Of a stretch of 35,034 nucleotides of DNA, positions 225 to 9,819 are shown piece by piece. Below the pieces are notes generated by a model. It had not been told where the DNA came from, made no database searches, and worked only from the letters and a program-made list of their open reading frames with translations. Both the position numbers and the translations under genes were made by a program. The number at the start of each line of letters is the position of its first letter. Position 1 is the first letter of the stretch. Source of the stretch: an uncultured Faecalibacterium sp. (lineage in GTDB: Bacteria > Bacillota > Clostridia > Oscillospirales > Ruminococcaceae); the NCBI GenBank assembly GCA_934526125.1, contig CAKSZU010000016.1, positions 1 through 35,034 of the forward strand, written 5' to 3'.

Positions 225-1520
225 TCAGCTGTTCATCTGCCGGAGGATCTCCCGGATCTGCGCGGAGGAGTAGCCCTCCTTCAGCAGCTCGGTCCGGATG
301 GCGGTGTCGCTCTTGCCCTGACTGCGGAGCCGGGCCGCGGTGTAGGGCACCGTGGTGCCGGACGAGACGCCGCTCCGGTTCACGCTCAGGTCTCCGCCCG
401 TCAGGCTGCCGCCCGTGTCGGCGGTGCTGCTCTGACGCTTCGCCGCGGCTTCCGCCTCAGTGCCGGCTTTCCCGGCGCTGCGGCTGGCCCGGGCCTGCTT
501 GCTCTCCCACTGGCTTCTGGCCAGTTCCAGCTTTTCGGCGGCAAGGGCATTGCTTGTCTGCTGCTGGCGCAGCTTGTCCTGATACTCCTGCTTTGCCTGC
601 TCGTTTTCCAGCTGCTGCTGGGTCAGGCTGTCCTGCCGCTGCTGCTCCTGCATCTTCTGGCTCCAGGCCGTATCCGCCCGGTCGGCCTCGTAGGCGCGGT
701 TGTTGGCGTAGATGTTGTAGCCGGTGCTCAGCAGGCTGCCCGCCATGGAGCCCAGACCTGCCGTGCCGGTGTAGGCCATCTGCACCGCGTCGCCGATGAG
801 CCCCAGCACGGTGATCACATTGTTGAACACCTGCTGACGCCGGGCCGACTCGTTCTGCTCCTGCCCGGAGTAATACCCGTACAGATCATCCAGCTGCCCC
901 AGATAATCCTGATAGCGGCCGTAGTCCTGCTGGTAGGCCTTCTGATAGGCATCGCTCTTCTGTTCCAGCTGGGTGTAGTAATCCGAAAGCTCCCGGTCAT
1001 AGGCGCTCCGGGCGCTCTGTTCCTGCCCGTTCAGCTGGTCGATCCGGTCCAGCAGCTCCTCGCCGCCGCTCTGGTAGGTCTCCAGTGCCAGACGGTACAG
1101 CGTGGGCACCGCCTCGTTCAGGGCACCGATCTGCTGCTGGTAGGCCTGCCGGGCCGCACTGGCCGCATAGCTGGAACCATACCCGCCGGTCAGGGCAGCG
1201 GCCTGTGCCGCCGCATCCGCGCTGGCATTCTGGGCGTTCTGGGTATAGAGCTGGGCGTACTGGCGGTACAGCGGGTCCTGTCCGTAGCTGTACCGGAATT
1301 CCTTCCGGCCCGCCAGCTCCTCCAGCAGCCCGTCGATCTGGTCCTGGTAGCGGCTCTGATAGCTGCCGGGGCGGTTCTGCTGCCACTGCTTCAGCTCCCC
1401 CGCCGCGTCCGTCACCTCCTGTGCAGGGCGGTACTCGGCCGCAGCCAGGGCATTCTCCACATCCTGACGGGTCTTCAGCCCGCCCACGGTGTAGTCCTGT
1501 TTCTTTTTTTCCTCGCTCAT
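225..1520 (-). CDS. phage ejection / internal virion-like protein (431 aa)
   Basis: Last gene of the minus-strand phage cassette. The ATG at 1520 is chosen because AAGGAG sits about 7 nt upstream; the open frame extends further but has no better start. The product is rich in Q, A, Y and E, with long coiled-coil-like stretches (roughly residues 60-230 and 290-370). A central hydrophobic, glycine-rich segment is near residues 245-285. The tail is Ser/Gly/Thr-rich and ends in a small helical motif (TELLKEGYSSAQIREIL). A helical protein with a membrane-active-looking patch at the distal end of a podovirus-like structural cluster fits a DNA-ejection or pilot protein. No family was recognised with certainty. 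It overlaps the upstream 62-aa gene by no bases and lies 13 nt after its stop. Confidence 0.75.
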   Translation of the reverse strand: MSEEKKKQDYTVGGLKTRQDVENALAAAEYRPAQEVTDAAGELKQWQQNRPGSYQSRYQDQIDGLLEELAGRKEFRYSYGQDPLYRQYAQLYTQNAQNASADAAAQAAALTGGYGSSYAASAARQAYQQQIGALNEAVPTLYRLALETYQSGGEELLDRIDQLNGQEQSARSAYDRELSDYYTQLEQKSDAYQKAYQQDYGRYQDYLGQLDDLYGYYSGQEQNESARRQQVFNNVITVLGLIGDAVQMAYTGTAGLGSMAGSLLSTGYNIYANNRAYEADRADTAWSQKMQEQQRQDSLTQQQLENEQAKQEYQDKLRQQQTSNALAAEKLELARSQWESKQARASRSAGKAGTEAEAAAKRQSSTADTGGSLTGGDLSVNRSGVSSGTTVPYTAARLRSQGKSDTAIRTELLKEGYSSAQIREILRQMNS

Positions 1521-1533
1521 GAAGTCTCCTTTC

Positions 1534-1722
1534 TCACGGGATACGGTCCAGCCGGGTGCAGAGTTCCTCCGAGAGGTTCTCGGTGTCCAGATTGCACAGC
1601 ACATACTGCAGCTGTTCCTGCAGCTGGTACAGATAATTCCGCAGCGCCCGCGCATCCTCCGGGTCCATGTTGTCGCTCAGCCGGGGCAGTCCGATCTTGC
1701 CCAGACCCGCAATGCTTGCCAT
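1534..1722 (-). CDS. small phage structural-cluster protein (62 aa)
   Basis: The ATG at 1722 has a strong GGAGGG site about 8 nt upstream, which overlaps the stop codon of the preceding gene. The short acidic protein is mostly one amphipathic helix (RNYLYQLQEQLQYVLCNLD) followed by ENLSEEL. Similar YLYQLxEQLxYxLxNLxxENL stretches occur in small proteins and tail-linked segments of Firmicutes phages, a recollection that needs a search. Its position between the tail-hub-like protein and the ejection-like protein suggests a minor tail or adaptor role. Function unknown. Confidence 0.7.
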   Translation of the reverse strand: MASIAGLGKIGLPRLSDNMDPEDARALRNYLYQLQEQLQYVLCNLDTENLSEELCTRLDRIP

Positions 1723-1725
1723 CGT

Positions 1726-3597
1726 TCATCCCTCCTGTTCCATTCTGCCGCCCCGAACCGTGCCGAAGCTCTTTGCCAGGCTCCGCAGGGTGATCTGCCC
1801 GCTGCCCCGCAGCCGGAGCCGCAGCGAGCCGCACCGGCGCGGCACAAGCGGAAGATCCAGACACCGGCGCGGGCCTTCCAGCGTCCGGGCCGCGGCTTCC
1901 TCCCATGGGCCGCCGTCATAGCTCATCTCCACGACAAGGCGGCTGCGGCAGGCGGCATCCAGCCGGAGCGTCAGGCGGGTCAGATACCGCTCTTCCGGGC
2001 TGTCCATCCCCAGATCCCCCGTGACCAGCTCAAATGGCACCTCCTGCTCGGTCCCGGCACCGCTCTCCCCGGCCGCTTCCCGGCCGGGGTCGGCGGCCCA
2101 GAGGGCACTGCCGTCCCAGAGGTAGAGCTGTCCGCCGGTGCTGGCCATCTCGCAGGAGCAGACATCCTCCTCATGCCAGAGTCCCCGCTCGGTATCATAG
2201 ACCAGCAGCCGCACCCGGTCCTCCCGGGCGATGTGCAGGTAATACCGGCCGTCCAGTGCGCCGCCCACGGCAGCTTTCACGTTGGACAGCCGCCCCGCAT
2301 CCAGCGCCGCCGAGACCTTGGCGGGGATGCTCCCATCCCATGCCATGACCCCGTCCGGCGAGAGATAATAGAGGGTCTCGTTCAGGACGCAGAGGCTCCT
2401 CGCCGCGTTCCGGGCCACACCCCGGCACCGCAGGGAGCTGAGCTGGAAATCCGACGGCCGCGAGCCGTACAATTTGTGCAGGGTATTTTCCTTGAAGAAC
2501 AGCGCATACCCCATGCAGGTGGCCGCCCCGGTAAAGGGGCCGTCGCTGCCCACGGTGACGGCATAACTGTCGGCGGCGATGCCCCGGTAGCTGAACCAGT
2601 TGGTCGGGTCGCCCAGCTTGCAGGCATAGATGACGTTTTCCCGGCTGGAACAGCCCCAGACCCGGTTGTCGCACTCGGTCAGAAACTCAAGGTCCGGCAC
2701 CCGCCGTTCCACCCGGACCGCTTCCGTCAGGACCATCTCCTGCCGCTCTTCCTCGTCCAGACTGACCCACACGGCACTGCTGCCGTTGCGGATCAGTTTC
2801 CCGTAGAACTTCCCGCCGCCGGGGTCCGCCCGGAGCCGCAGCCTGTTTTCGGCCGCATCGTACACGATCCGGTCTCCGTCCAGTTCCTCCCACTGCCCGG
2901 CTTCTTCCGCGCCGGTGCCGGTGAGGGTCACGGTGTCCCAGACCCGGAAGTCCGTCCCGATCCCCTCCGCCGTCACAAGGCAGTATTCCAGCGGGATGGG
3001 GGTCCAGCTGCCGGAGGCCTCGCTGTATTCTTCCAGCGTACTTCCGGCGGCGTAGGGCTTCTCCGGGTCGGCGATCTTCAGGAATCGCTGCCCGTCTGCC
3101 GGTTCCTCCGGCTCCTGTGTGCCCTTCGCGGTTCCTTCGTAGGTCTTTCCCTCTGCGTCGCAGGGGGCAAAGGTCACGCTGATCTCCCCTGCCTCCCACA
3201 GCGCCCCCAGGGACGCAGCCGTGCCGTCCGCGGTGTCAAAGGCGATCTTGTCCGGGAAGATCAGCACCCGGGTCCCGATGCCCACCAGCGTCTTGCGGCT
3301 GTCGGCCACGGCGTTCTTCACCCGCACCGGGCGGTCGGGGTCCTCGTCCGGGGTGTAGACCAGGTCCCGCCCGCAGACGGTCAGAAGCCCGTTGAGGTGA
3401 TACATCCCGTTCAGCCCGGTCAGTTCCTGCAGCTTCCGGCGGGGCATCCGGGTACTCAGGGCCGGGAAATCCCGGGCCGAGAAGTTGAGCCCGGTACTGT
3501 ATTCGGCTTCGGTGCAGCCGTAGGTCTCGTTGAGCCCTCCGAAGGCCCGCAGAAGGCTGCGGGTGTTGTTCAGGCTGCTGCGGTTCGCCAGGATCAT
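1726..3597 (-). CDS. phage tail-hub / DNA-stabilisation-like beta-propeller protein (623 aa)
   Basis: The ATG at 3597 is preceded by a near-perfect TAAGGAGGTG site. The protein begins MILANRSSLNNTRS and has many short beta-rich repeats. The middle part (around residues 325-480) reads like propeller blades, with segments such as NVIYACKLGDPTNWF, GYALFFKENTLHKLYGS and LYYLSPDGVMAWDG. This style is typical of podovirus tail hub, nozzle or packaged-DNA-stabilisation proteins. No transmembrane segment or signal peptide is seen. The gene follows the 128-aa neck-like gene after a 12-nt gap. It is the largest tail-associated product in the cassette, and no fibre or spike gene accompanies it. The family assignment is inference from position and sequence style. 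Confidence 0.75.
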   Translation of the reverse strand: MILANRSSLNNTRSLLRAFGGLNETYGCTEAEYSTGLNFSARDFPALSTRMPRRKLQELTGLNGMYHLNGLLTVCGRDLVYTPDEDPDRPVRVKNAVADSRKTLVGIGTRVLIFPDKIAFDTADGTAASLGALWEAGEISVTFAPCDAEGKTYEGTAKGTQEPEEPADGQRFLKIADPEKPYAAGSTLEEYSEASGSWTPIPLEYCLVTAEGIGTDFRVWDTVTLTGTGAEEAGQWEELDGDRIVYDAAENRLRLRADPGGGKFYGKLIRNGSSAVWVSLDEEERQEMVLTEAVRVERRVPDLEFLTECDNRVWGCSSRENVIYACKLGDPTNWFSYRGIAADSYAVTVGSDGPFTGAATCMGYALFFKENTLHKLYGSRPSDFQLSSLRCRGVARNAARSLCVLNETLYYLSPDGVMAWDGSIPAKVSAALDAGRLSNVKAAVGGALDGRYYLHIAREDRVRLLVYDTERGLWHEEDVCSCEMASTGGQLYLWDGSALWAADPGREAAGESGAGTEQEVPFELVTGDLGMDSPEERYLTRLTLRLDAACRSRLVVEMSYDGGPWEEAAARTLEGPRRCLDLPLVPRRCGSLRLRLRGSGQITLRSLAKSFGTVRGGRMEQEG

Positions 3598-3609
3598 CGG
3601 CTCACCTCC

Positions 3610-3996
3610 TTACCAGCGCCACCGGGCGCTTTTGGGCGGCTTTGCCCGCCGCCGCAGCCACGCCGACAGCTCTGCCGCGATGCTGTTGTACTGCGCCTGC
3701 TCCCCGGCATAGCGCTCCGTCTCGCCCAGGGCCGCATCCAGCCGGGCGCAGAGATAATGGGGATACAGCGCATCGAAGGGCGGCGGCACCAGAAGCTCGG
3801 TCTCATCCGCAAGCCCGCCCTCCTCGGGCCATGCAAGGTCTGCCCCCACACCGGCCCGGGCATTGCCGTTCGGTGCAAACAGCAGGGCACGCAGCATCCC
3901 GTCCTCCTCGCAGAGCCACCGCTGCCGGGTGCGCTCTTCCACCCGGCAGCCCGGCCGCAGCTCCCTGGTCTGTTCCAGGGCCTGTCCGACGGTCAT
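3610..3996 (-). CDS. phage head-tail connector/adaptor-like protein (128 aa)
   Basis: The ATG at 3996 has AAAGGAGG about 8 nt upstream. The helical stretch DALYPHYLCARLDAALGETERYAGEQAQYNSI (about residues 78-109) resembles the 'Y-L-x-A-x-x-A-x-x-x-x-E-x-x-R-Y-x-x-x-x-x-x-Y-N' helices of phage neck adaptors. A basic tryptophan-containing tail (AKPPKSARWRW) closes the protein. It lies between the small post-capsid protein and the tail-hub-like protein, the usual place for an adaptor. The name rests on context and a weak motif. Confidence 0.7.
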   Translation of the reverse strand: MTVGQALEQTRELRPGCRVEERTRQRWLCEEDGMLRALLFAPNGNARAGVGADLAWPEEGGLADETELLVPPPFDALYPHYLCARLDAALGETERYAGEQAQYNSIAAELSAWLRRRAKPPKSARWRW

Positions 3997-4010
3997 TGTT
4001 CCGCCTCCTT

Positions 4011-4226
4011 TCAGCCGGCCGCCGTCTCGGCGGCGGCGATCCGCGCAGCGGTGCGCTCGTCCTGCAGCTGGCTGTGTTCCAGCACCTCGGCCACCTCCGG
4101 CGGCACCTCCACGTCCACGCCCCGGCGGATCTTGTAATTCACCCCGTTGACGCTGACGAAAAGGTCCTCCTTGTACCGGCCGTTGTCCCGGAACAGCCGG
4201 ATGCGGACATTCTTTCTCTCTTCCAT
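4011..4226 (-). CDS. small phage protein following the major capsid gene (71 aa)
   Basis: The ATG at 4226 has a good AAAGGAG site 7-8 nt upstream. The protein is charged, with a compact centre (DLFVSVNGVNYKIRRGVDVEVPPEVAEVLEHS) and an Ala-rich end. Small proteins with an 'FVSVNGxxYxIxRGVxVEVPxxVAEVLxNS' core are often found beside capsid genes in Firmicutes phages (recollection, not searched here). Possible roles are capsid decoration or head completion; function not known. It starts 32 nt after the capsid stop, inside the same operon. Confidence 0.8.
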   Translation of the reverse strand: MEERKNVRIRLFRDNGRYKEDLFVSVNGVNYKIRRGVDVEVPPEVAEVLEHSQLQDERTAARIAAAETAAG

Positions 4227-4258
4227 CTTCTTTCTCCTTTCCTTTGCAGACAGGCGGC

Positions 4259-5266
4259 TCAGTTGGCCGCTGCGGTAGCCGAGTAGCTGGACACGCTCTC
4301 GATCCGCACCATGTACTGCTCCACCAGACGCTCGGCGGCGCGCATTCCCTTCCAGCCCACCGAAGCGCGCTGGTTCAGAGGGTCATCGCCATAGCCCAGC
4401 TGCTTGACGATGTGTTCCAGGCCGCCGCCCTCCAGCTCGGTGACGCCGTAGGCGTGGGCACCCAGCACCAGAGTACCGAACACCGCCATGCCCGCCGGGC
4501 AGGACGCATCCTTCCAGATCTTGGCCTCGCTGGTCTCGATAAACCGGATGTTGCCCAGCTTGCCGATCTCGCCGCGGTACATGGTCTCCGGGTCCGCATA
4601 CTTGTGGGCCTCCACAAACTCGCGGCAGGTCTTGAGGTCGTAGGCTGCATAGGGGTGGATGATGGCGATGTAGCTGTCGCCGATGGGGTCGGCGTTCATG
4701 GCACCCAGCTGCGCTGCCGCCTGGAAGAACAGCTTCGGGGTCAGGGTGCAGCTCTGGTCCAGATCCTTGCGGCTGGTCACGGCAGTCTCGGTGCCGTCCG
4801 CATTCTGTCTGGGGGCATACAGCACATTGGTGCCGCCTGCCAGCACATCCCGGGTGATGCTGTCCATGGTGCGCCCGGCCTGGCTTGCCAGCACACGAGT
4901 GGCCTGCACCACGTTGTTGTCGATGGCAGTCATCTGCAGCACATCGGTCAGCGGGGTCCAGCCGCCGTACTGGTGCAGGTCGCTGGTAATGGTGGTCACG
5001 TTCAGGGCCTGCCCGTTGGGGGTGACGCCCTCGGTCAGCGGGGTTGTCGCCTTGGGCAGGCTGTCGTACTTGCGGAACTCGATGGTCTTGCCGCCATTCT
5101 GGGGCACCGGGTAGTAATCCGCGAACTGGTCATGCACCAGCCGGGGCTCGGCCTGATCGATGAGCCTTTTCTCATAGAAGGTCTTCATCTCGGGGGACAT
5201 GGACGCAGTCGCGTTCAGGGGTGCGTCCGCTGCAAACATCTGGAGATCAAAAACGTAATTTTTCAT
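4259..5266 (-). CDS. major capsid protein, N4-gp56-like, with N-terminal Prp-type cleavage motif (335 aa)
   Basis: The ATG at 5266 has AAAGGA about 10 nt upstream. The sequence carries the pattern of N4-gp56-family capsid proteins: FYEKRLIDQAEPRLVHDQF, NGGKTIEFRKY, PLTEGVTPNGQ, an ITSDLHQYGGW segment and GGTNVLYAPR. About 335 aa suits the family. The extreme N-terminus reads NYVFDLQMFAADA, which closely resembles the motif cut by the Firmicutes protease Prp (LxLDLQxF|A, cut after Phe). The expected cut is after F11. The upstream gene encodes a Prp-like protease fused to the scaffold, so N-terminal processing during assembly is likely. This is inferred from the motif, not demonstrated. Confidence 0.88.
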   Translation of the reverse strand: MKNYVFDLQMFAADAPLNATASMSPEMKTFYEKRLIDQAEPRLVHDQFADYYPVPQNGGKTIEFRKYDSLPKATTPLTEGVTPNGQALNVTTITSDLHQYGGWTPLTDVLQMTAIDNNVVQATRVLASQAGRTMDSITRDVLAGGTNVLYAPRQNADGTETAVTSRKDLDQSCTLTPKLFFQAAAQLGAMNADPIGDSYIAIIHPYAAYDLKTCREFVEAHKYADPETMYRGEIGKLGNIRFIETSEAKIWKDASCPAGMAVFGTLVLGAHAYGVTELEGGGLEHIVKQLGYGDDPLNQRASVGWKGMRAAERLVEQYMVRIESVSSYSATAAAN

Positions 5267-5324
5267 AGCATGGGTCCTTTCTTCTGTTTATTCTATCTCC
5301 GGCCCTTCCGGGCCGGTTTTCCGG

Positions 5325-6263
5325 TCAGAATGTGATCTTTGCGCCGTGGAGGGCCTGCCGTTCCAGCGCTTCCCGCTGGGCGCGGGTCATCCGGTTCACG
5401 TCGGCCCCGGTGACGGCAGCACCGCCGGGGCGGGTCCCGTTTTCGGCCGGGCGTCCCGCCCTCTGCCGGATCCGCTCCACAACGCCCTGCTCCACGGTGC
5501 GGGCCGTCCGGGCAAGGGCATCGTCATAGTGGGCCAGCCGGTAGGCGTCCGCCATCCGCATCCCGGGCAGCTGCATCAGCCGCCGCATCTCCGAGTTCTG
5601 CAGCTCCTTCTGCAGCGAGAACTCCGGCACGTCCCGGCGCATCACGGCCTCTTCCGCCGCCCAGCGGCGGTGCAGCTGTTCCACGGCGTTCCGGCCCGGG
5701 AAGTGTTCCGGCAGGGCCGGACGGGACTTTGCCGGTTCCGGGTCTGCCGGGGCAGGCTGCGGTTTTTCCGGCTCTGGCGTTTTTTCCGCCGTGTCCGGTT
5801 CCGCCTGCCCGGCCCGTTCCCCGGGCTTCAGGGTGCCGGACGCCACGGCCTGCTGCTCCTGCGCCGTACTCAGGGCCGGGGCCGCCTCGCCCTCCGCAAA
5901 GAGCTGCAGGTCCATCATGGCCTGTCCGCCCCGGTCACTCAGGTCGGCAAAGCGGAGGTTGTCCGGGTAGCGCTCCGCCAGCAGGGCAAAGCCGGTCTTG
6001 GCCAGCTCAAAGGCCCCTTCCACCCAGGGCGGGTAGGGTGCCGGTGCCGTCACCACCAGCCGGGGGCCTTCCGGTTCGTCCCAGGCATCGCTGCGGACGT
6101 TCTCTTCCCCGGCCAGCAGGCTGATCAGCGCCTGCATCAGGGTGCTGGCCCCGGCGCAGACGATATCCTGCCCTGCCGGGGCATAGCCCGCATGGCCGCC
6201 GGCTTCCAGCCGCAGGGTCGGCCCGTGGGGGCCGTCCGGTTCCGTGTAATTTACCTTGATCAT
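5325..6263 (-). CDS. Prp-like cysteine protease fused to phage scaffold protein (312 aa)
   Basis: Residues 1-106 match the ribosomal-processing cysteine protease Prp: GGHAGYAPAGQDIVCAGAST holds the dyad His24 and Cys36 with the same 12-residue spacing as H22/C34 of S. aureus Prp, and the domain ends in ERYPDNLRF. A short linker then carries DLQLFAE (residues 118-124), a Prp-type cleavage site. Next comes a Pro/Glu/Ala-rich low-complexity stretch and a helical C-terminal half, as expected for a scaffold. The ATG overlaps the portal stop as ATGA, so the two are probably translationally coupled. Expected role: assemble the procapsid, release the scaffold by cutting at F122, and trim the capsid N-terminus. 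In S. aureus the host Prp does the equivalent job on phage 80alpha; here protease and substrate are one polypeptide. M116/M117 just before the site could allow a scaffold-only product, but no good Shine-Dalgarno is seen there. Confidence 0.9.
   Translation of the reverse strand: MIKVNYTEPDGPHGPTLRLEAGGHAGYAPAGQDIVCAGASTLMQALISLLAGEENVRSDAWDEPEGPRLVVTAPAPYPPWVEGAFELAKTGFALLAERYPDNLRFADLSDRGGQAMMDLQLFAEGEAAPALSTAQEQQAVASGTLKPGERAGQAEPDTAEKTPEPEKPQPAPADPEPAKSRPALPEHFPGRNAVEQLHRRWAAEEAVMRRDVPEFSLQKELQNSEMRRLMQLPGMRMADAYRLAHYDDALARTARTVEQGVVERIRQRAGRPAENGTRPGGAAVTGADVNRMTRAQREALERQALHGAKITF
5895..5912 (-). other. predicted Prp cleavage site DLQLF|A inside the protease-scaffold fusion
   Basis: These codons encode D118-L-Q-L-F-A123 of the fusion protein. 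The same six-residue pattern (D-L-Q-M-F-A) sits at residues 7-12 of the major capsid protein (codons 5231-5248). The cut is expected between F122 and A123 by analogy with Prp processing of ribosomal protein L27. Confidence 0.7.
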
Positions 6264-7987
6264 TGTTTCACTCCTTCCATGGCATCTGCCATTGCCTTTG
6301 TACTCAGGTTCTCCCCGGCACCGCTCAGCGTTCCGGTGAACCGGGCCAGCTGGTTCTGGGCCGCCGTCAGCCGGACGGCCAGGGTCCCGTTCTGCCGCAC
6401 CCTCTGGCGCACTTTTTCGATGCCCTCAAAGTCCATCATCTCCAGCGCTGCCAGAGCCGCATCGGCATTCTGCGGGGCAAAAAAGCCCAGCTGATAGCAC
6501 TCCTTGGCGGTCTCGTTCTGCGACAGGCGGCTGAAGGTAGATTTTTTCTCGGCACTGACCACGATGTCGAACACCGGCTCCCGGCTGCCCAGCTCCACAC
6601 CGGCCACGCTCTCTGCCGGGCGGGGCCGCAGCGCAGCCCCCGAAAAGGGCACGAACTCGCTGCCGCCGGTGGGGCCGACGATCCGGAACACCCGCTCTTC
6701 GTCATAGAACTGCCGCATCAGGTCGATGATGAGGTAACACTCCCGGGCAAAGGCGCGGTAGGCGCTCTTGAGCATATCCCGGCTCAGCTTGCTTCCGGCC
6801 TCCTGTAAGGCGGCGATGGCTGAAGCCGCTGTCACGCCTCCGGCCGTACCGCCCTGGGTCATGTCCCGGTTGCCGCTGATCTCTTTCAGCTCCTCGATCC
6901 GGCTGCTGCGGTAGCTCAGGCTGTTGCCCTGCAGCCCCGCCGTCTGCAGCGGCCGGAAGCTTTCCTCCCCCAGCCGCCCGGCCACATGGATGATGTCCCG
7001 GCTCAGATCCGCCAGCTCTTCCTCGTTGACCCCCGCCGTATCGCTGAGGACATACCGCTGCTTCGAGGCCAGCAGGACATTCTCGTCCATGGCATGGTTC
7101 ATCCGGTCGATGGCCATCTGGCATTCCTTCATCACATCGATGTAGCCGAACCCCGCCGGGCTGTCCTCCTCCATGAAAAGCGGATCAAAGACAAAGGGAT
7201 ACTTTCCGTGGTCGTAAAACCCCCGGCCTGCCAGAAGCGGGTCATCCTCGCTGGCATAGAGGACGACCCCATTGCAGAACTTGCAGTAATGGAGCAGGAC
7301 CCGGCCGTTCTCATCCGGCTTTTTGTAATACCAGTCCACCACCACGCTCTTGTCGGCGGTGTCCAGCCCGCCGTCGTGGAGAAAGCGCGGAACTTCCAGC
7401 GCACTGCCGCCGTGGCCCTTCAGCTGGGGCCAGCGGGTTTCCAGCTGCTTCGTGTTCTCCATGCTCAGGGAGAAAAAGTGGGGCGAGGACTGGATGTCGT
7501 TCACTCCCGGCTCCCAGTAGAGCATCAGCAGGTTCATGGGCCGGACGGCGATCTCGCCCACGCCGCCCCGGGCCTCCGGGTCCCAGAACACCCCCTTGAC
7601 GCCGGTGCCCTGCTTGAGCTTGCGCCACCAGGTATCGCTGTACACCTGTTCATAGTCCGCCTGCTCCAGAACCACCGGCAGGATGCTGGAAAGCACCCGC
7701 GCGGTCTGCTCGTCGTCCGCCGCCCGGGGCAGGACATTGGGGGCGGGATAGTTGTCCATGGCATCGGCGTGCTTGTTGGCGATGGAGTTGAACAGCCACC
7801 CGCTGGAAGGCTGCGGCTTTCCCTCCATCATGGGGTTCTGGTAATTTTTCCAGTGGCCCATCCGGAACCACAGCTCATTGTCCACCAGCCGCCGGTCCAG
7901 CGCCGCCTTTCCCGCCTTGTACTTCTGTAAGATCGCAGTGGCCTCCGCCACTTCCTCCGGCCCCACCCGGGGTCTGTTTTCGTCCAT
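6260..7987 (-). CDS. phage portal protein (575 aa)
   Basis: The ATG at 7987 has AAAGGAG about 7 nt upstream. Size and position (large terminase, portal, scaffold, capsid) fit a portal. Supporting segments are an N-terminal helical region ending WFRMGHWKNYQNP, HADAMDNYPAPNVLPRAADDEQTARVLSSILPVVLEQADYE, WWRKLKQGTGVKGVFWDPEA, and a long helical crown region with GNRDMTQGGTAGGVTAASAIAALQEAG. This is the style of P22/N4-like podoviral portals. Its stop overlaps the start of the protease-scaffold gene. A 117-nt gap before it contains a host-type palindromic repeat, whereas the other junctions are tight. Confidence 0.88.
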   Translation of the reverse strand: MDENRPRVGPEEVAEATAILQKYKAGKAALDRRLVDNELWFRMGHWKNYQNPMMEGKPQPSSGWLFNSIANKHADAMDNYPAPNVLPRAADDEQTARVLSSILPVVLEQADYEQVYSDTWWRKLKQGTGVKGVFWDPEARGGVGEIAVRPMNLLMLYWEPGVNDIQSSPHFFSLSMENTKQLETRWPQLKGHGGSALEVPRFLHDGGLDTADKSVVVDWYYKKPDENGRVLLHYCKFCNGVVLYASEDDPLLAGRGFYDHGKYPFVFDPLFMEEDSPAGFGYIDVMKECQMAIDRMNHAMDENVLLASKQRYVLSDTAGVNEEELADLSRDIIHVAGRLGEESFRPLQTAGLQGNSLSYRSSRIEELKEISGNRDMTQGGTAGGVTAASAIAALQEAGSKLSRDMLKSAYRAFARECYLIIDLMRQFYDEERVFRIVGPTGGSEFVPFSGAALRPRPAESVAGVELGSREPVFDIVVSAEKKSTFSRLSQNETAKECYQLGFFAPQNADAALAALEMMDFEGIEKVRQRVRQNGTLAVRLTAAQNQLARFTGTLSGAGENLSTKAMADAMEGVKQ

Positions 7988-8048
7988 AGGTTCTCCTTTC
8001 TTTTTTCAGCAGCCCTGTCTCCAGCTGAAGCTGGCCTCGCAGATGTCA

Positions 8049-8097
8049 TGGCTCTCCCTTTGGGAGAGCTGGCGAGCGAATGCGAGACTGAGAGGGC
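8049..8097. repeat. palindromic 'TGGCTCTCCC...GACTGAGAGGGC' repeat inside the phage cassette
   Basis: One half-unit of the repeat family also seen at 15385-15530, 19653-19705 and 19854-19980. It contains a GGCTCTCCC-TTTGGGAGAGC hairpin and the GACTGAGAGGGC end. It lies between the large-terminase stop (8105) and the portal start (7987), and accounts for most of that otherwise unusual gap. Confidence 0.75.
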
Positions 8098-8104
8098 AAG
8101 CCCG

Positions 8105-9538
8105 CTACACCCTGTAAAACCGCGCTTTCCGGTGCAGTTCCAGCGGATCGTCCCCCGCCGGAGGGCTGACGGCCTGCCGGGGCGGTGCCATGGGGTGTTC
8201 CATCAGCACATAACGGCATTCATCGTAGATATGATCCTCCTGCCGGGTGTCGATGTCCTCCACGTTGCTCTCGTCATAGACGAGGTTTGGCAGGGTGCGG
8301 ATGAAATGCCGGCAGCTGTGGAACACCTGAAACATGGGCCTGCCCCCGGCATCAAAGGCCAGCCGGTAATGGAACTGCATCTTTCCGGCCAGACGGGTGT
8401 TGTCCCCGGGCATCCAGTGCAGGAAATTCGGGCTCCGCTCCATCATAGAAGCGATGCTCTCTCCCCGGCTCTCATCAAAGATAGCCGGGTCTGCCACGCC
8501 CAGGATGGTGCGCCCTTTCAGCAGCGGGTCGTTCTGTTCCACCTCCCGGATCCGCCTTGCCTGTTCCACCGGGTCGATGCGCAGGCCCTCGTTGGGGCGT
8601 CCGGTGCAGCCGTACAGCTCCCGGATGCGGTAGAGCCTCCCCTCCTCGTCGGCCGTATACCAGCCCACCGAAAAAGGCCGGGAGAAGCCGAAATCGTAGC
8701 CCCGCCAGATCTTCCAGTGCTTCGGGATCGGAAACGGCGCGATGACGTGGGTCCAGCGCTGATCCTGATAATGGGAAGGGTCGTTCCGCCATTCCGTGAA
8801 CACCTGCCCCGAAAAGCTGTCCCAGCTCCCGTAGAGCAGGGCCTGCTTTTCCGCCTCCGGCAGGGAGGCGAGGCTGGCCAGGTAGTCCGGGTCGTTTTCC
8901 AGCAGGGCCGGGTTGTCGAACACGCTGCTGGGGATGAACACCCGCGCCCGTTCCAGCACCTTTTCCGTGCCGTCCGGCATCCGCACCGGCAGTTTCTCCA
9001 CGATGGGGGTGCCGGGCGGGGCGGGCGTGATGAACCGGGCCTTGACCCAGCCATGCCCCACCCCGCCGGGGTTGGTGGTCGCCCGCAGATAGACCCGGGT
9101 GCCCGGGCCGGTGGGGCGGTTGCGGCTCATCATATAGCTGTACTCTTCCCATTCAAAATGGGTCAGCTCGTCAAAGCCGATGAAGTCGAAGGCCTTTCCC
9201 TGATAATTCGTCCGGTCCTTGGTGTACTGCATGGAGCCGAAATAGATCTTCGCGCCGCTGGGGAACACCCACACATGGCTGGCAGCATTGTACTGCGCCG
9301 CCGGGAACGCCCTCCGGTAATACATCTGGCTCTTGTCCACCAGGTCGGACAGCTGCGGGTAGGTCTTGCGCAGGATCAGTCCCCGGTAATGGGGGATCTG
9401 CACCTGCCGCAGCGCTTCGATGACCAGTGCATCGCTCTTGCCGCCGCCCGCCGCACCGCCGTACAGCACTTCCGGCTCGGGCCGCCGCAGGAACTCGGCC
9501 TGCTTCGGCTGGGGTCTCCATACGATCTCTGTACTCAT
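8105..9538 (-). CDS. terL: phage terminase large subunit (477 aa)
   Basis: The ATG at 9538 has GGAGG just upstream and overlaps the small-subunit stop as ATGA. N-terminal ATPase: Walker A GGAAGGGKS (residues 27-35), Walker B DFIGFDE with D123/E124, and the coupling motif TTNPGG. C-terminal RNase H-like nuclease: GYDFGFSRPFSVGW and GVADPAIFD supply acidic metal ligands. The length is normal. The enzyme would drive DNA into the procapsid and cut concatemers. All motifs appear intact, which argues against simple decay of the cassette. Confidence 0.95.
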   Translation of the reverse strand: MSTEIVWRPQPKQAEFLRRPEPEVLYGGAAGGGKSDALVIEALRQVQIPHYRGLILRKTYPQLSDLVDKSQMYYRRAFPAAQYNAASHVWVFPSGAKIYFGSMQYTKDRTNYQGKAFDFIGFDELTHFEWEEYSYMMSRNRPTGPGTRVYLRATTNPGGVGHGWVKARFITPAPPGTPIVEKLPVRMPDGTEKVLERARVFIPSSVFDNPALLENDPDYLASLASLPEAEKQALLYGSWDSFSGQVFTEWRNDPSHYQDQRWTHVIAPFPIPKHWKIWRGYDFGFSRPFSVGWYTADEEGRLYRIRELYGCTGRPNEGLRIDPVEQARRIREVEQNDPLLKGRTILGVADPAIFDESRGESIASMMERSPNFLHWMPGDNTRLAGKMQFHYRLAFDAGGRPMFQVFHSCRHFIRTLPNLVYDESNVEDIDTRQEDHIYDECRYVLMEHPMAPPRQAVSPPAGDDPLELHRKARFYRV

Positions 9539-9819
9539 ACATCCTCCACGGCTGGCAGCAGCACCACGCCGCACTCGGCCTGCCCGGCCCCGGCTCCCTG
9601 CTCGTTCAGGGTCTTTGCCACGGCGGCCAGATCCTTCAGCACACCGGTGGTCTCCTTCAGCTCCCGGAGGGCGGAGGCGTTTTCTCCCCCGGCCTTCCGG
9701 GCCTTCTGGCGTTCGCTCAGCTCCCGCACCTCCTGTGCCAGCATCGTGCTCAGCAGGTCGGTGGCCCGCTGCAGACTGGCAAGGCTCCGTTTTCCTGCCG
9801 CCCGTTTCGTCTGTGCCAT
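9535..9819 (-). CDS. terminase small subunit-like protein (94 aa)
   Basis: The ATG at 9819 has GGAAG about 14 nt upstream, so the site is spaced rather far. The protein is almost entirely helical: a basic start (MAQTKRAAGKRS), then LLSTMLAQEVRELSERQ and LRELKETTGVLKDLAAVAKTLNEQ. This fits the oligomerisation part of a small terminase, and the gene is coupled to terL. At 94 aa it is shorter than most small terminases, and no helix-turn-helix is recognisable. DNA recognition may thus be weak, altered or supplied by another protein. Assignment rests mainly on position. Confidence 0.65.
   Translation of the reverse strand: MAQTKRAAGKRSLASLQRATDLLSTMLAQEVRELSERQKARKAGGENASALRELKETTGVLKDLAAVAKTLNEQGAGAGQAECGVVLLPAVEDV

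What the first reader, a model, noticed from the sequence alone, without database searches (positions are those of the whole stretch)
5325..6263. Self-contained capsid maturation: Prp-like protease fused to the scaffold, with matching cleavage motifs
The scaffold gene begins with a full Prp domain (His24, Cys36 in GHAGYAPAGQDIVCAGAS). A Prp site (DLQLF|A, residues 118-123) lies exactly at the domain junction, and the capsid protein made by the next gene starts with FDLQMF|AAD. In S. aureus the host Prp trims ribosomal protein L27 and is known to process phage 80alpha scaffold and capsid. Here the protease appears to have been captured by the phage cassette and joined to its own substrate. It may also act on host L27, linking assembly with ribosome maturation. 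I do not know whether such fusions have been characterised.
Basis: partly seen in the sequence, partly recalled or inferred. Interest (0 to 1): 0.88.

Follow-up and report, generated by a model that had tools for sequence, protein, structure and literature searches.

The report
Capsid scaffold carrying its own protease
A gut bacterium's DNA-packaging particle (a tamed phage) makes its capsid scaffold as one protein with a cutting enzyme that some phages borrow from the cell, probably because this bacterium no longer has that enzyme elsewhere.

Summary
ORF 5325-6263 (-) is a Prp-type cysteine protease (residues 1-108, His24/Cys36) fused to a capsid scaffold, with DLQLF|A at the junction and a matching FDLQMF|A at the start of the capsid protein. 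But this is no ordinary phage: the cassette matches FpGTA operon I, a Faecalibacterium gene transfer agent published in 2026 (PMC12946183), whose main text holds neither 'protease', 'Prp' nor 'cleav'. PF04327 is found in 30 of 31 Faecalibacterium species genomes, in every case between portal and capsid genes of such a cassette: fused in 25 (one with a lost frame), separate neighbours in 5. Faecalibacterium L27 lacks the cleavable extension wherever resolved (13 loci and one more genome), so 'acts on host L27' is not supported. Best reading: the host lineage has neither Prp nor the L27 site elsewhere, and the packaging element keeps its own Prp, delivered by the scaffold, to free the scaffold and trim the capsid protein. 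The layout parallels P2 gpO with an unrelated protease. Cleavage is inferred, not shown; re-searching the published FpGTA mass spectra would test it. New variant of a known kind.

The parts
5325..6263 (-). prp-scaffold fusion gene, 312 aa
5940..6263 (-). Prp protease domain, residues 1-108
6192..6194 (-). codon of catalytic His24
   Evidence: alignment to S. aureus Prp 4peo/7kld
6156..6158 (-). codon of catalytic Cys36
5916..5918 (-). codon of Met116, ATG in 36 of 36 distinct DNA sequences; possible internal start, or a substrate residue
   Evidence: ribosome-binding-site test gives no support
5895..5912 (-). Prp-type site DLQLF|A, residues 118-123, at the domain junction
   Evidence: sequence; conserved in 120 of 120 listed relatives; low-confidence, so probably exposed, stretch 116-129 in the model
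5694..5894 (-). variable Pro/Glu-rich linker, residues 124-190
   Evidence: alignment, highest dN of the gene
5328..5693 (-). scaffold C-terminal part, residues 191-312, mostly helical
   Evidence: phrog_13908 E 1.6e-19 (no function given there); position between portal and capsid genes; model helices 191-211 and 246-270
4259..5266 (-). major capsid protein
   Evidence: PF25209, phrog_1357 major head protein E 4e-85
5231..5248 (-). matching site DLQMF|A of the capsid protein, residues 7-12
6260..7987 (-). portal protein (P22-like)
   Evidence: PF16510
8105..9544 (-). large terminase (start codon not settled)
   Evidence: PF03237
9535..9819 (-). probable small terminase
   Evidence: position; conserved directly before terL in relatives; FpGTA paper calls it possible TerS
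4011..4226 (-). 71-aa conserved gene
   Evidence: phrog_15239
3610..3996 (-). 128-aa gene, probable head-tail adaptor (name inferred)
   Evidence: phrog_12105, unknown function
1726..3597 (-). 623-aa gene, internal virion / stopper-like protein (stopper name inferred)
   Evidence: phrog_511 internal virion protein
1534..1722 (-). 62-aa ORF resembling the N-terminus of a 251-aa gene of relative L202
   Evidence: seen by eye; not tested
225..1523 (-). 432-aa gene, last of the cassette
   Evidence: no family; conserved in place

Best explanation
The gene makes a capsid scaffold that carries its own maturation protease. The Prp domain rides with the scaffold into the growing capsid of the gene transfer agent FpGTA. 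There, in trans or in cis, it cuts after Phe122, which separates protease and scaffold, and after Phe11 of the capsid protein, which trims its N-terminus. The host lineage has no other Prp and an L27 that needs none, so the particle cannot borrow the protease as staphylococcal phage 80alpha does. Shown here: domain, catalytic pair, fold, sites, conservation, purifying selection, absence of another Prp. Inferred: activity, the two cuts, delivery into the capsid, the reason for the fusion.
For: Prp domain and fold. Key residues G23 H24 A25 G31 D33 C36 invariant in 59 aligned sequences, S40 in at least 90%; the S. aureus counterparts Gly21, His22, Ala23, Gly29, Asp31, Cys34, Ser38 are described as functional in PMC9405229 (passages). 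Prp-domain dN/dS about 0.03-0.22 in the 10 close pairs that could be measured of 11 tried. Sites at both substrates and none in 72,623 residues of other genes. Only Prp of the genome: 28 of 30 positive genomes have one match, the other two a second one in a second cassette. Natural control in 119 genomes of the family: of 11 with a related capsid protein, 4 have a Prp beside it and a Phe-ending N-terminal site (2 of these 4 divergent, LNLHLF and LNLRMF), 7 have no PF04327 match on that contig and 0 of 7 has such a site (Fisher 0.003 uncorrected for kinship). Stand-alone-prp phages show sites on both scaffold and capsid protein in 11 contigs, some near-duplicates, with matched divergent pairs such as LHTHMF/LHTQMF (L006). 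FpGTA I makes ~40 nm particles in which the capsid and portal proteins dominate (PMC12946183, section 9).
Against: No protein cleavage was observed. In 80alpha neither capsid nor scaffold cleavage is needed for viable phage, only an intact scaffold N-terminus (PMC5744158, passages), so cleavage here may be dispensable too. Phages in Prp-bearing hosts also carry a prp gene (G105, G142), so lack of host Prp is not the only setting. One of 25 fused genes has lost its frame just after the junction (G030), and 2 of 120 listed relatives lack His or the loop. The scaffold role of the C-terminal part rests on position and an unnamed PHROG; its fold was barely tested.
Confidence: 0.8

Rival explanations
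1. Nested genes as in lambda C/Nu3 (recalled): besides the full protein, a scaffold alone is translated from Met116, so that protease is a minor species and most scaffold never carries it. Compatible with the best explanation as an addition.
For: The codon is ATG in 36 of 36 distinct sequences although its neighbours vary, and Met at this place (P7) is not required in the capsid sites. Split relatives start the scaffold close to the site.
Against: Upstream pairing with the anti-Shine-Dalgarno is no better than in synonymous recodings: mean -5.76 against -5.78 kcal/mol, 32 sequences. It is, however, better than at 1,206 other in-frame ATGs (-3.4) and weaker than the 22 Prp-scaffold starts (-10.2), so the test is not decisive.
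Confidence: 0.25
2. The Prp domain is no longer a protease and serves as a chaperone or assembly part of the scaffold.
For: Prp has been suggested to act as a chaperone for L27 (PMC9405229, passage); in 80alpha cleavage is dispensable.
Against: His and Cys kept in 118 of 120, low dN/dS, and sites kept in both substrates.
Confidence: 0.08
3. The fusion also processes host L27, linking capsid assembly and ribosome maturation.
For: S. aureus Prp does both jobs (PMC5744158).
Against: No L27 extension in 13 of 14 Faecalibacterium L27 loci, the 14th unresolved; also short in G026. In 7 complete genomes the DNA pattern for [DN]LQ[L/M/I/F]FA gave 17 hits: 9 cassette sites, 1 scaffold remnant (L221), 7 not at a plausible protein start. 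Proteins with other site variants were not searched.
Confidence: 0.02
4. Another cellular protease makes the cuts and the Prp domain is incidental.
For: Not excluded experimentally.
Against: No second Prp in 28 of 30 positive genomes, and the sites follow the presence of a neighbouring Prp in related cassettes, 4 of 4 against 0 of 7.
Confidence: 0.04

Closest known systems
FpGTA operon I of Faecalibacterium (Borodovich et al. 2026, PMC12946183)
   Same: Same genus, gene content and order (TerS, TerL, portal, scaffold, capsid, further phage genes), about 10 kb; ten ORFs there, ten here if the 62-aa ORF is counted. Strains named there (e.g. APC923/61-1, APC922/41-1, ATCC 27768, APC923/51-1) are loci L011, L012, L014, L015 here.
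   Different: In the main text the scaffold is called head scaffolding only; 'protease', 'Prp', 'cleav', 'peptidase' and 'L27' occur 0 times. Its supplementary files were not open to me.
P2 gpO
   Same: N-terminal protease (residues 1-141) and C-terminal scaffold (195-284) in one protein that cuts itself and the capsid protein (PMC7552001, passages).
   Different: gpO is a serine protease (S107A mutant is deficient); here a Prp cysteine protease. No homology claimed.
Phage 80alpha scaffold and capsid cut by host Prp
   Same: LQxF|A sites near the N-termini of both proteins (PMC5744158, PMC9405229, passages).
   Different: 80alpha uses the host's Prp; here the protease is encoded in the cassette, joined to the scaffold.
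Stand-alone phage prp genes (phrog_4478; e.g. L008, L034, L035, L049, L053-L056)
   Same: Prp gene directly before scaffold and capsid genes with matching sites.
   Different: Two genes, not fused.
Lambda C/Nu3 (recalled, no call)
   Same: Protease and scaffold in one frame.
   Different: Unrelated protease; internal start known there, unproven here.

Membership tests
Prp peptidases (PF04327, MEROPS C108 per PMC9405229) | profile match over the curated cut-off | tested here: met
   43.4 bits, cut-off 27
Prp peptidases (PF04327, MEROPS C108 per PMC9405229) | catalytic His and Cys in the GHA...DIVCA loop | tested here: met
Prp peptidases (PF04327, MEROPS C108 per PMC9405229) | Prp fold | tested here: met
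Prp peptidases (PF04327, MEROPS C108 per PMC9405229) | proteolysis at LQxF|A | not testable with these tools
   needs expression or mass spectrometry
L27-processing ribosomal Prp (YsxB) | gene between rplU and rpmA | tested here: not met
   gene lies between portal and capsid genes (relatives)
L27-processing ribosomal Prp (YsxB) | cognate L27 with cleavable N-terminal extension | tested here: not met
   tested in Faecalibacterium relatives, not in the window's own genome, which is not held: L27 starts MAHKKG in 13 of 14 loci, one unresolved
Protease-scaffold fusions (P2 gpO type) | protease N-terminal, scaffold C-terminal, one protein, next to the capsid gene | tested here: inconclusive
   protease part met; scaffold part inferred from position, helices and phrog_13908
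Protease-scaffold fusions (P2 gpO type) | gpO-type serine protease domain | tested here: not met
   Prp cysteine protease instead; works like gpO, is not a gpO
FpGTA operon I | TerS-TerL-portal-scaffold-capsid and accessory genes, no replication genes, in Faecalibacterium | tested here: met
   window atpD 99% identical to Faecalibacterium genome G018
FpGTA operon I | packages 8.4-8.9 kb host DNA into ~40 nm particles | not testable with these tools
   reported for other strains

The most novel reading that the evidence does not exclude
Loss of Prp together with the L27 extension closed the cell to phages that borrow Prp for capsid maturation; phage lineages that carried their own prp escaped this, and the one tamed as FpGTA welded it to the scaffold. 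If so, the genus-wide gene transfer agent holds the last Prp of these cells and its particle output could be switched off by inhibiting one active-site cysteine.
Probability: 0.15. Interest if true: 0.78.

Novelty: new variant of a known kind. Interest (0 to 1): 0.6.

Why it matters
It gives a mechanism for capsid maturation in the first gene transfer agent described from human gut commensals, points to a single residue (Cys36) whose removal should test it, and shows that capsid processing by Prp, known as a host-borrowing trait of staphylococcal phages, is also phage-encoded, and here covalently tied to the substrate. The tight link between host Prp and long L27 in 114 genomes (76 of 77 against 3 of 37) frames a testable question about why phages carry their own copy.

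Tried and rejected
Host L27 as substrate: rejected. Recent capture of prp from the host ribosomal operon: not supported by the Prp tree, though 104 columns give weak support (0.83) and the HOST and ALONE labels do not form clean clades. Internal start at Met116: ribosome-binding-site test gave no support and is not decisive. A purely mobile prophage: not favoured, because distances of cassette genes and host atpD agree (Mantel r 0.76-0.88, 24-25 genomes, p 1e-4) and the site is partly conserved; but only 10 of 21-22 bipartitions are shared and three strongly supported conflicts exist, and the tRNA-His/Arg neighbour is missing in G018 (L196) and in the chicken-type genomes examined. Solved-structure matches for the C-terminal scaffold part: none listed, the part was barely tested. 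Whole-protein phmmer against PDB finds S. aureus Prp only at E 0.0073 and one likely chance hit above the other Prps; the profile search is needed. Literature: 10 searches of the held library showed no paper on a Prp-scaffold fusion or a phage-encoded Prp; subscription journals are mostly missing, and the two founding Prp papers (PMC4418427, PMC5397363) are not held.

Full report

2. What the cassette is. The window's minus strand from 225 to 9819 holds a probable small terminase, large terminase, P22-like portal, the fusion, capsid protein, a 71-aa gene, two connector-like genes, a 62-aa ORF and a 432-aa gene; tRNA-Arg and tRNA-His lie at 7-164, and an M16 peptidase gene lies beyond 10116. 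The same set in the same order is found in Faecalibacterium genomes (some contigs are cut). The window's atpD is 99% identical to that of Faecalibacterium genome G018. Borodovich et al. 2026 (PMC12946183; I read the abstract, sections 9, 26 and 28 and passages) describe exactly this as FpGTA operon I, 10.5 kb with ten ORFs, in all twelve Faecalibacterium genomes they examined, with ~40 nm particles, ~9 kb DNA and capsid and portal proteins dominating the proteome of ATCC 27766. 'Protease', 'Prp', 'cleav', 'peptidase' and 'L27' occur 0 times in its main text. The element is therefore known; its protease, as far as I could search, is not.

3. Distribution and host background. PF04327 is found in 30 of 31 genomes of the genus; the exception, G020, is a 1.8 Mb assembly. 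In all 30 the match lies between portal and capsid genes. 28 have one match; G001 and G006 have a second one in a second, also fused, cassette. The main copy is fused and intact in 24, fused with a lost frame after the junction in G030, and two separate genes in G024, G025, G026, G027 and G029. L27 was found in 14 of 16 Faecalibacterium genomes searched: 13 of the 14 start MAHKKG after a strong ribosome-binding site, with no earlier start in frame; L090 is an unresolved run-on frame. Where I looked (L077, L080), rpmA follows rplU with no prp between them.

4. A natural experiment in the family. Of 119 genomes of the family, 114 gave an L27 match. Of 77 with the extension, 76 have PF04327; the exception, G101, has its L27 at a contig edge. 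Of 37 without it, 3 have PF04327 (recounted; Fisher 2e-24, not corrected for kinship). These three are G002 and G026, whose Prp is the cassette's, and G086, whose Prp sits right after rplU at the end of a contig other than the one with its L27, perhaps a stray contig. So host Prp and long L27 go together, and Faecalibacterium belongs to the side that has neither.

5. Do sites follow the protease? Related capsid proteins occur in 11 of the 119 genomes. Four have a Prp beside them (G002, G026, G105, G142) and a Phe-ending site at the capsid N-terminus, two of these divergent (LNLRMF|A, LNLHLF|E) with comparable sites at the scaffold start (IDLTVF|G, LLHLF|L). Seven have no PF04327 match on the capsid contig, and none of the seven has such a site. 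In the phage contigs, 11 with a stand-alone prp show sites on both scaffold and capsid protein (L034 and L050 are near-identical). L006 has the unusual pair HTHMF|D and HTQMF|D. This covariation within each element is the best sequence evidence that Prp cuts these proteins. G105 and G142 also have a host Prp, so carrying a prp is not limited to hosts without one.

6. Selection and descent. In the 10 pairs measured of 11, the Prp domain has dN/dS of about 0.03-0.22, and the linker is the least constrained part. Cassette and atpD distances correlate (Mantel r 0.76 terL, 0.77 portal, 0.88 capsid, 0.84 fusion; p 1e-4), 10 bipartitions are shared of 22 and 21, and three strong conflicts remain: mostly vertical descent with some exchange. 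In the Prp tree 31 fused domains fall in a group of 33 with two stand-alone phage Prps (support 0.83).

7. Mechanism. Most likely the protease enters the procapsid as part of the scaffold, frees it and trims the capsid protein, as P2 gpO does with another protease class (PMC7552001, passages). Delivery, activity and the cuts are inferred. 80alpha warns that cleavage may be dispensable (PMC5744158, passages). Whether a free scaffold is also started at Met116 is open: the codon is ATG in 36 of 36 sequences, but there is no codon-level sign of a ribosome-binding site.

8. Novelty. Protease-scaffold fusions, Prp-cut capsids and FpGTA are each known. The combination, a Prp-scaffold fusion as the only Prp in nearly all genomes of the genus, was not found in 10 searches of the held library. 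I file it as a new variant of a known kind, interest 0.6.

Noticed in passing
L001:3973-4113, L004:4964-5104, L103/L199 (G030): A ~140-base stretch sits inside the fusion gene exactly at the cleavage site and duplicates the LQ[LM]FA part; similar stretches lie near tRNA genes or between genes in L013, L011, L199, L040, L002 and L196, so it looks like a small dispersed repeat.
   Followed up: partly
L247 (G013:C1:1530000-1545000), about 5343-7397: A degraded second cassette: portal followed directly by a scaffold frame starting MDLQLFADG with no Prp, next to arrays that read like translated CRISPR-type repeats.
   Followed up: no
L006:6033-8397; L244; L245: Divergent Prps paired with divergent but matching scaffold and capsid sites (HTHMF/HTQMF; LHLF/LHLF; LTVF/LRMF): a possible set for studying protease specificity.
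   Followed up: partly
L008:10695-11219: A later structural gene of a prp-bearing phage also starts with a site (MFETGLQLFAEA), perhaps a third Prp substrate.
   Followed up: no
window 1534-1722: 62-aa ORF that resembles the start of a 251-aa gene in L202; in the human-type cassettes this gene may have been cut short.
   Followed up: no
L091, L092, L100, L102: Split scaffolds carry a conserved odd leader (LLPALCxAKRC or similar) before the cleavage site.
   Followed up: no
L040-L048 and others (IMG/VR): Pieces of this chromosomal gene-transfer-agent operon are catalogued as viral contigs.
   Followed up: no
P0093, P0004, P0005: Relatives with internal duplications or foreign C-terminal domains (PF17853, PF13556 in P0093), perhaps assembly chimeras.
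   Followed up: no
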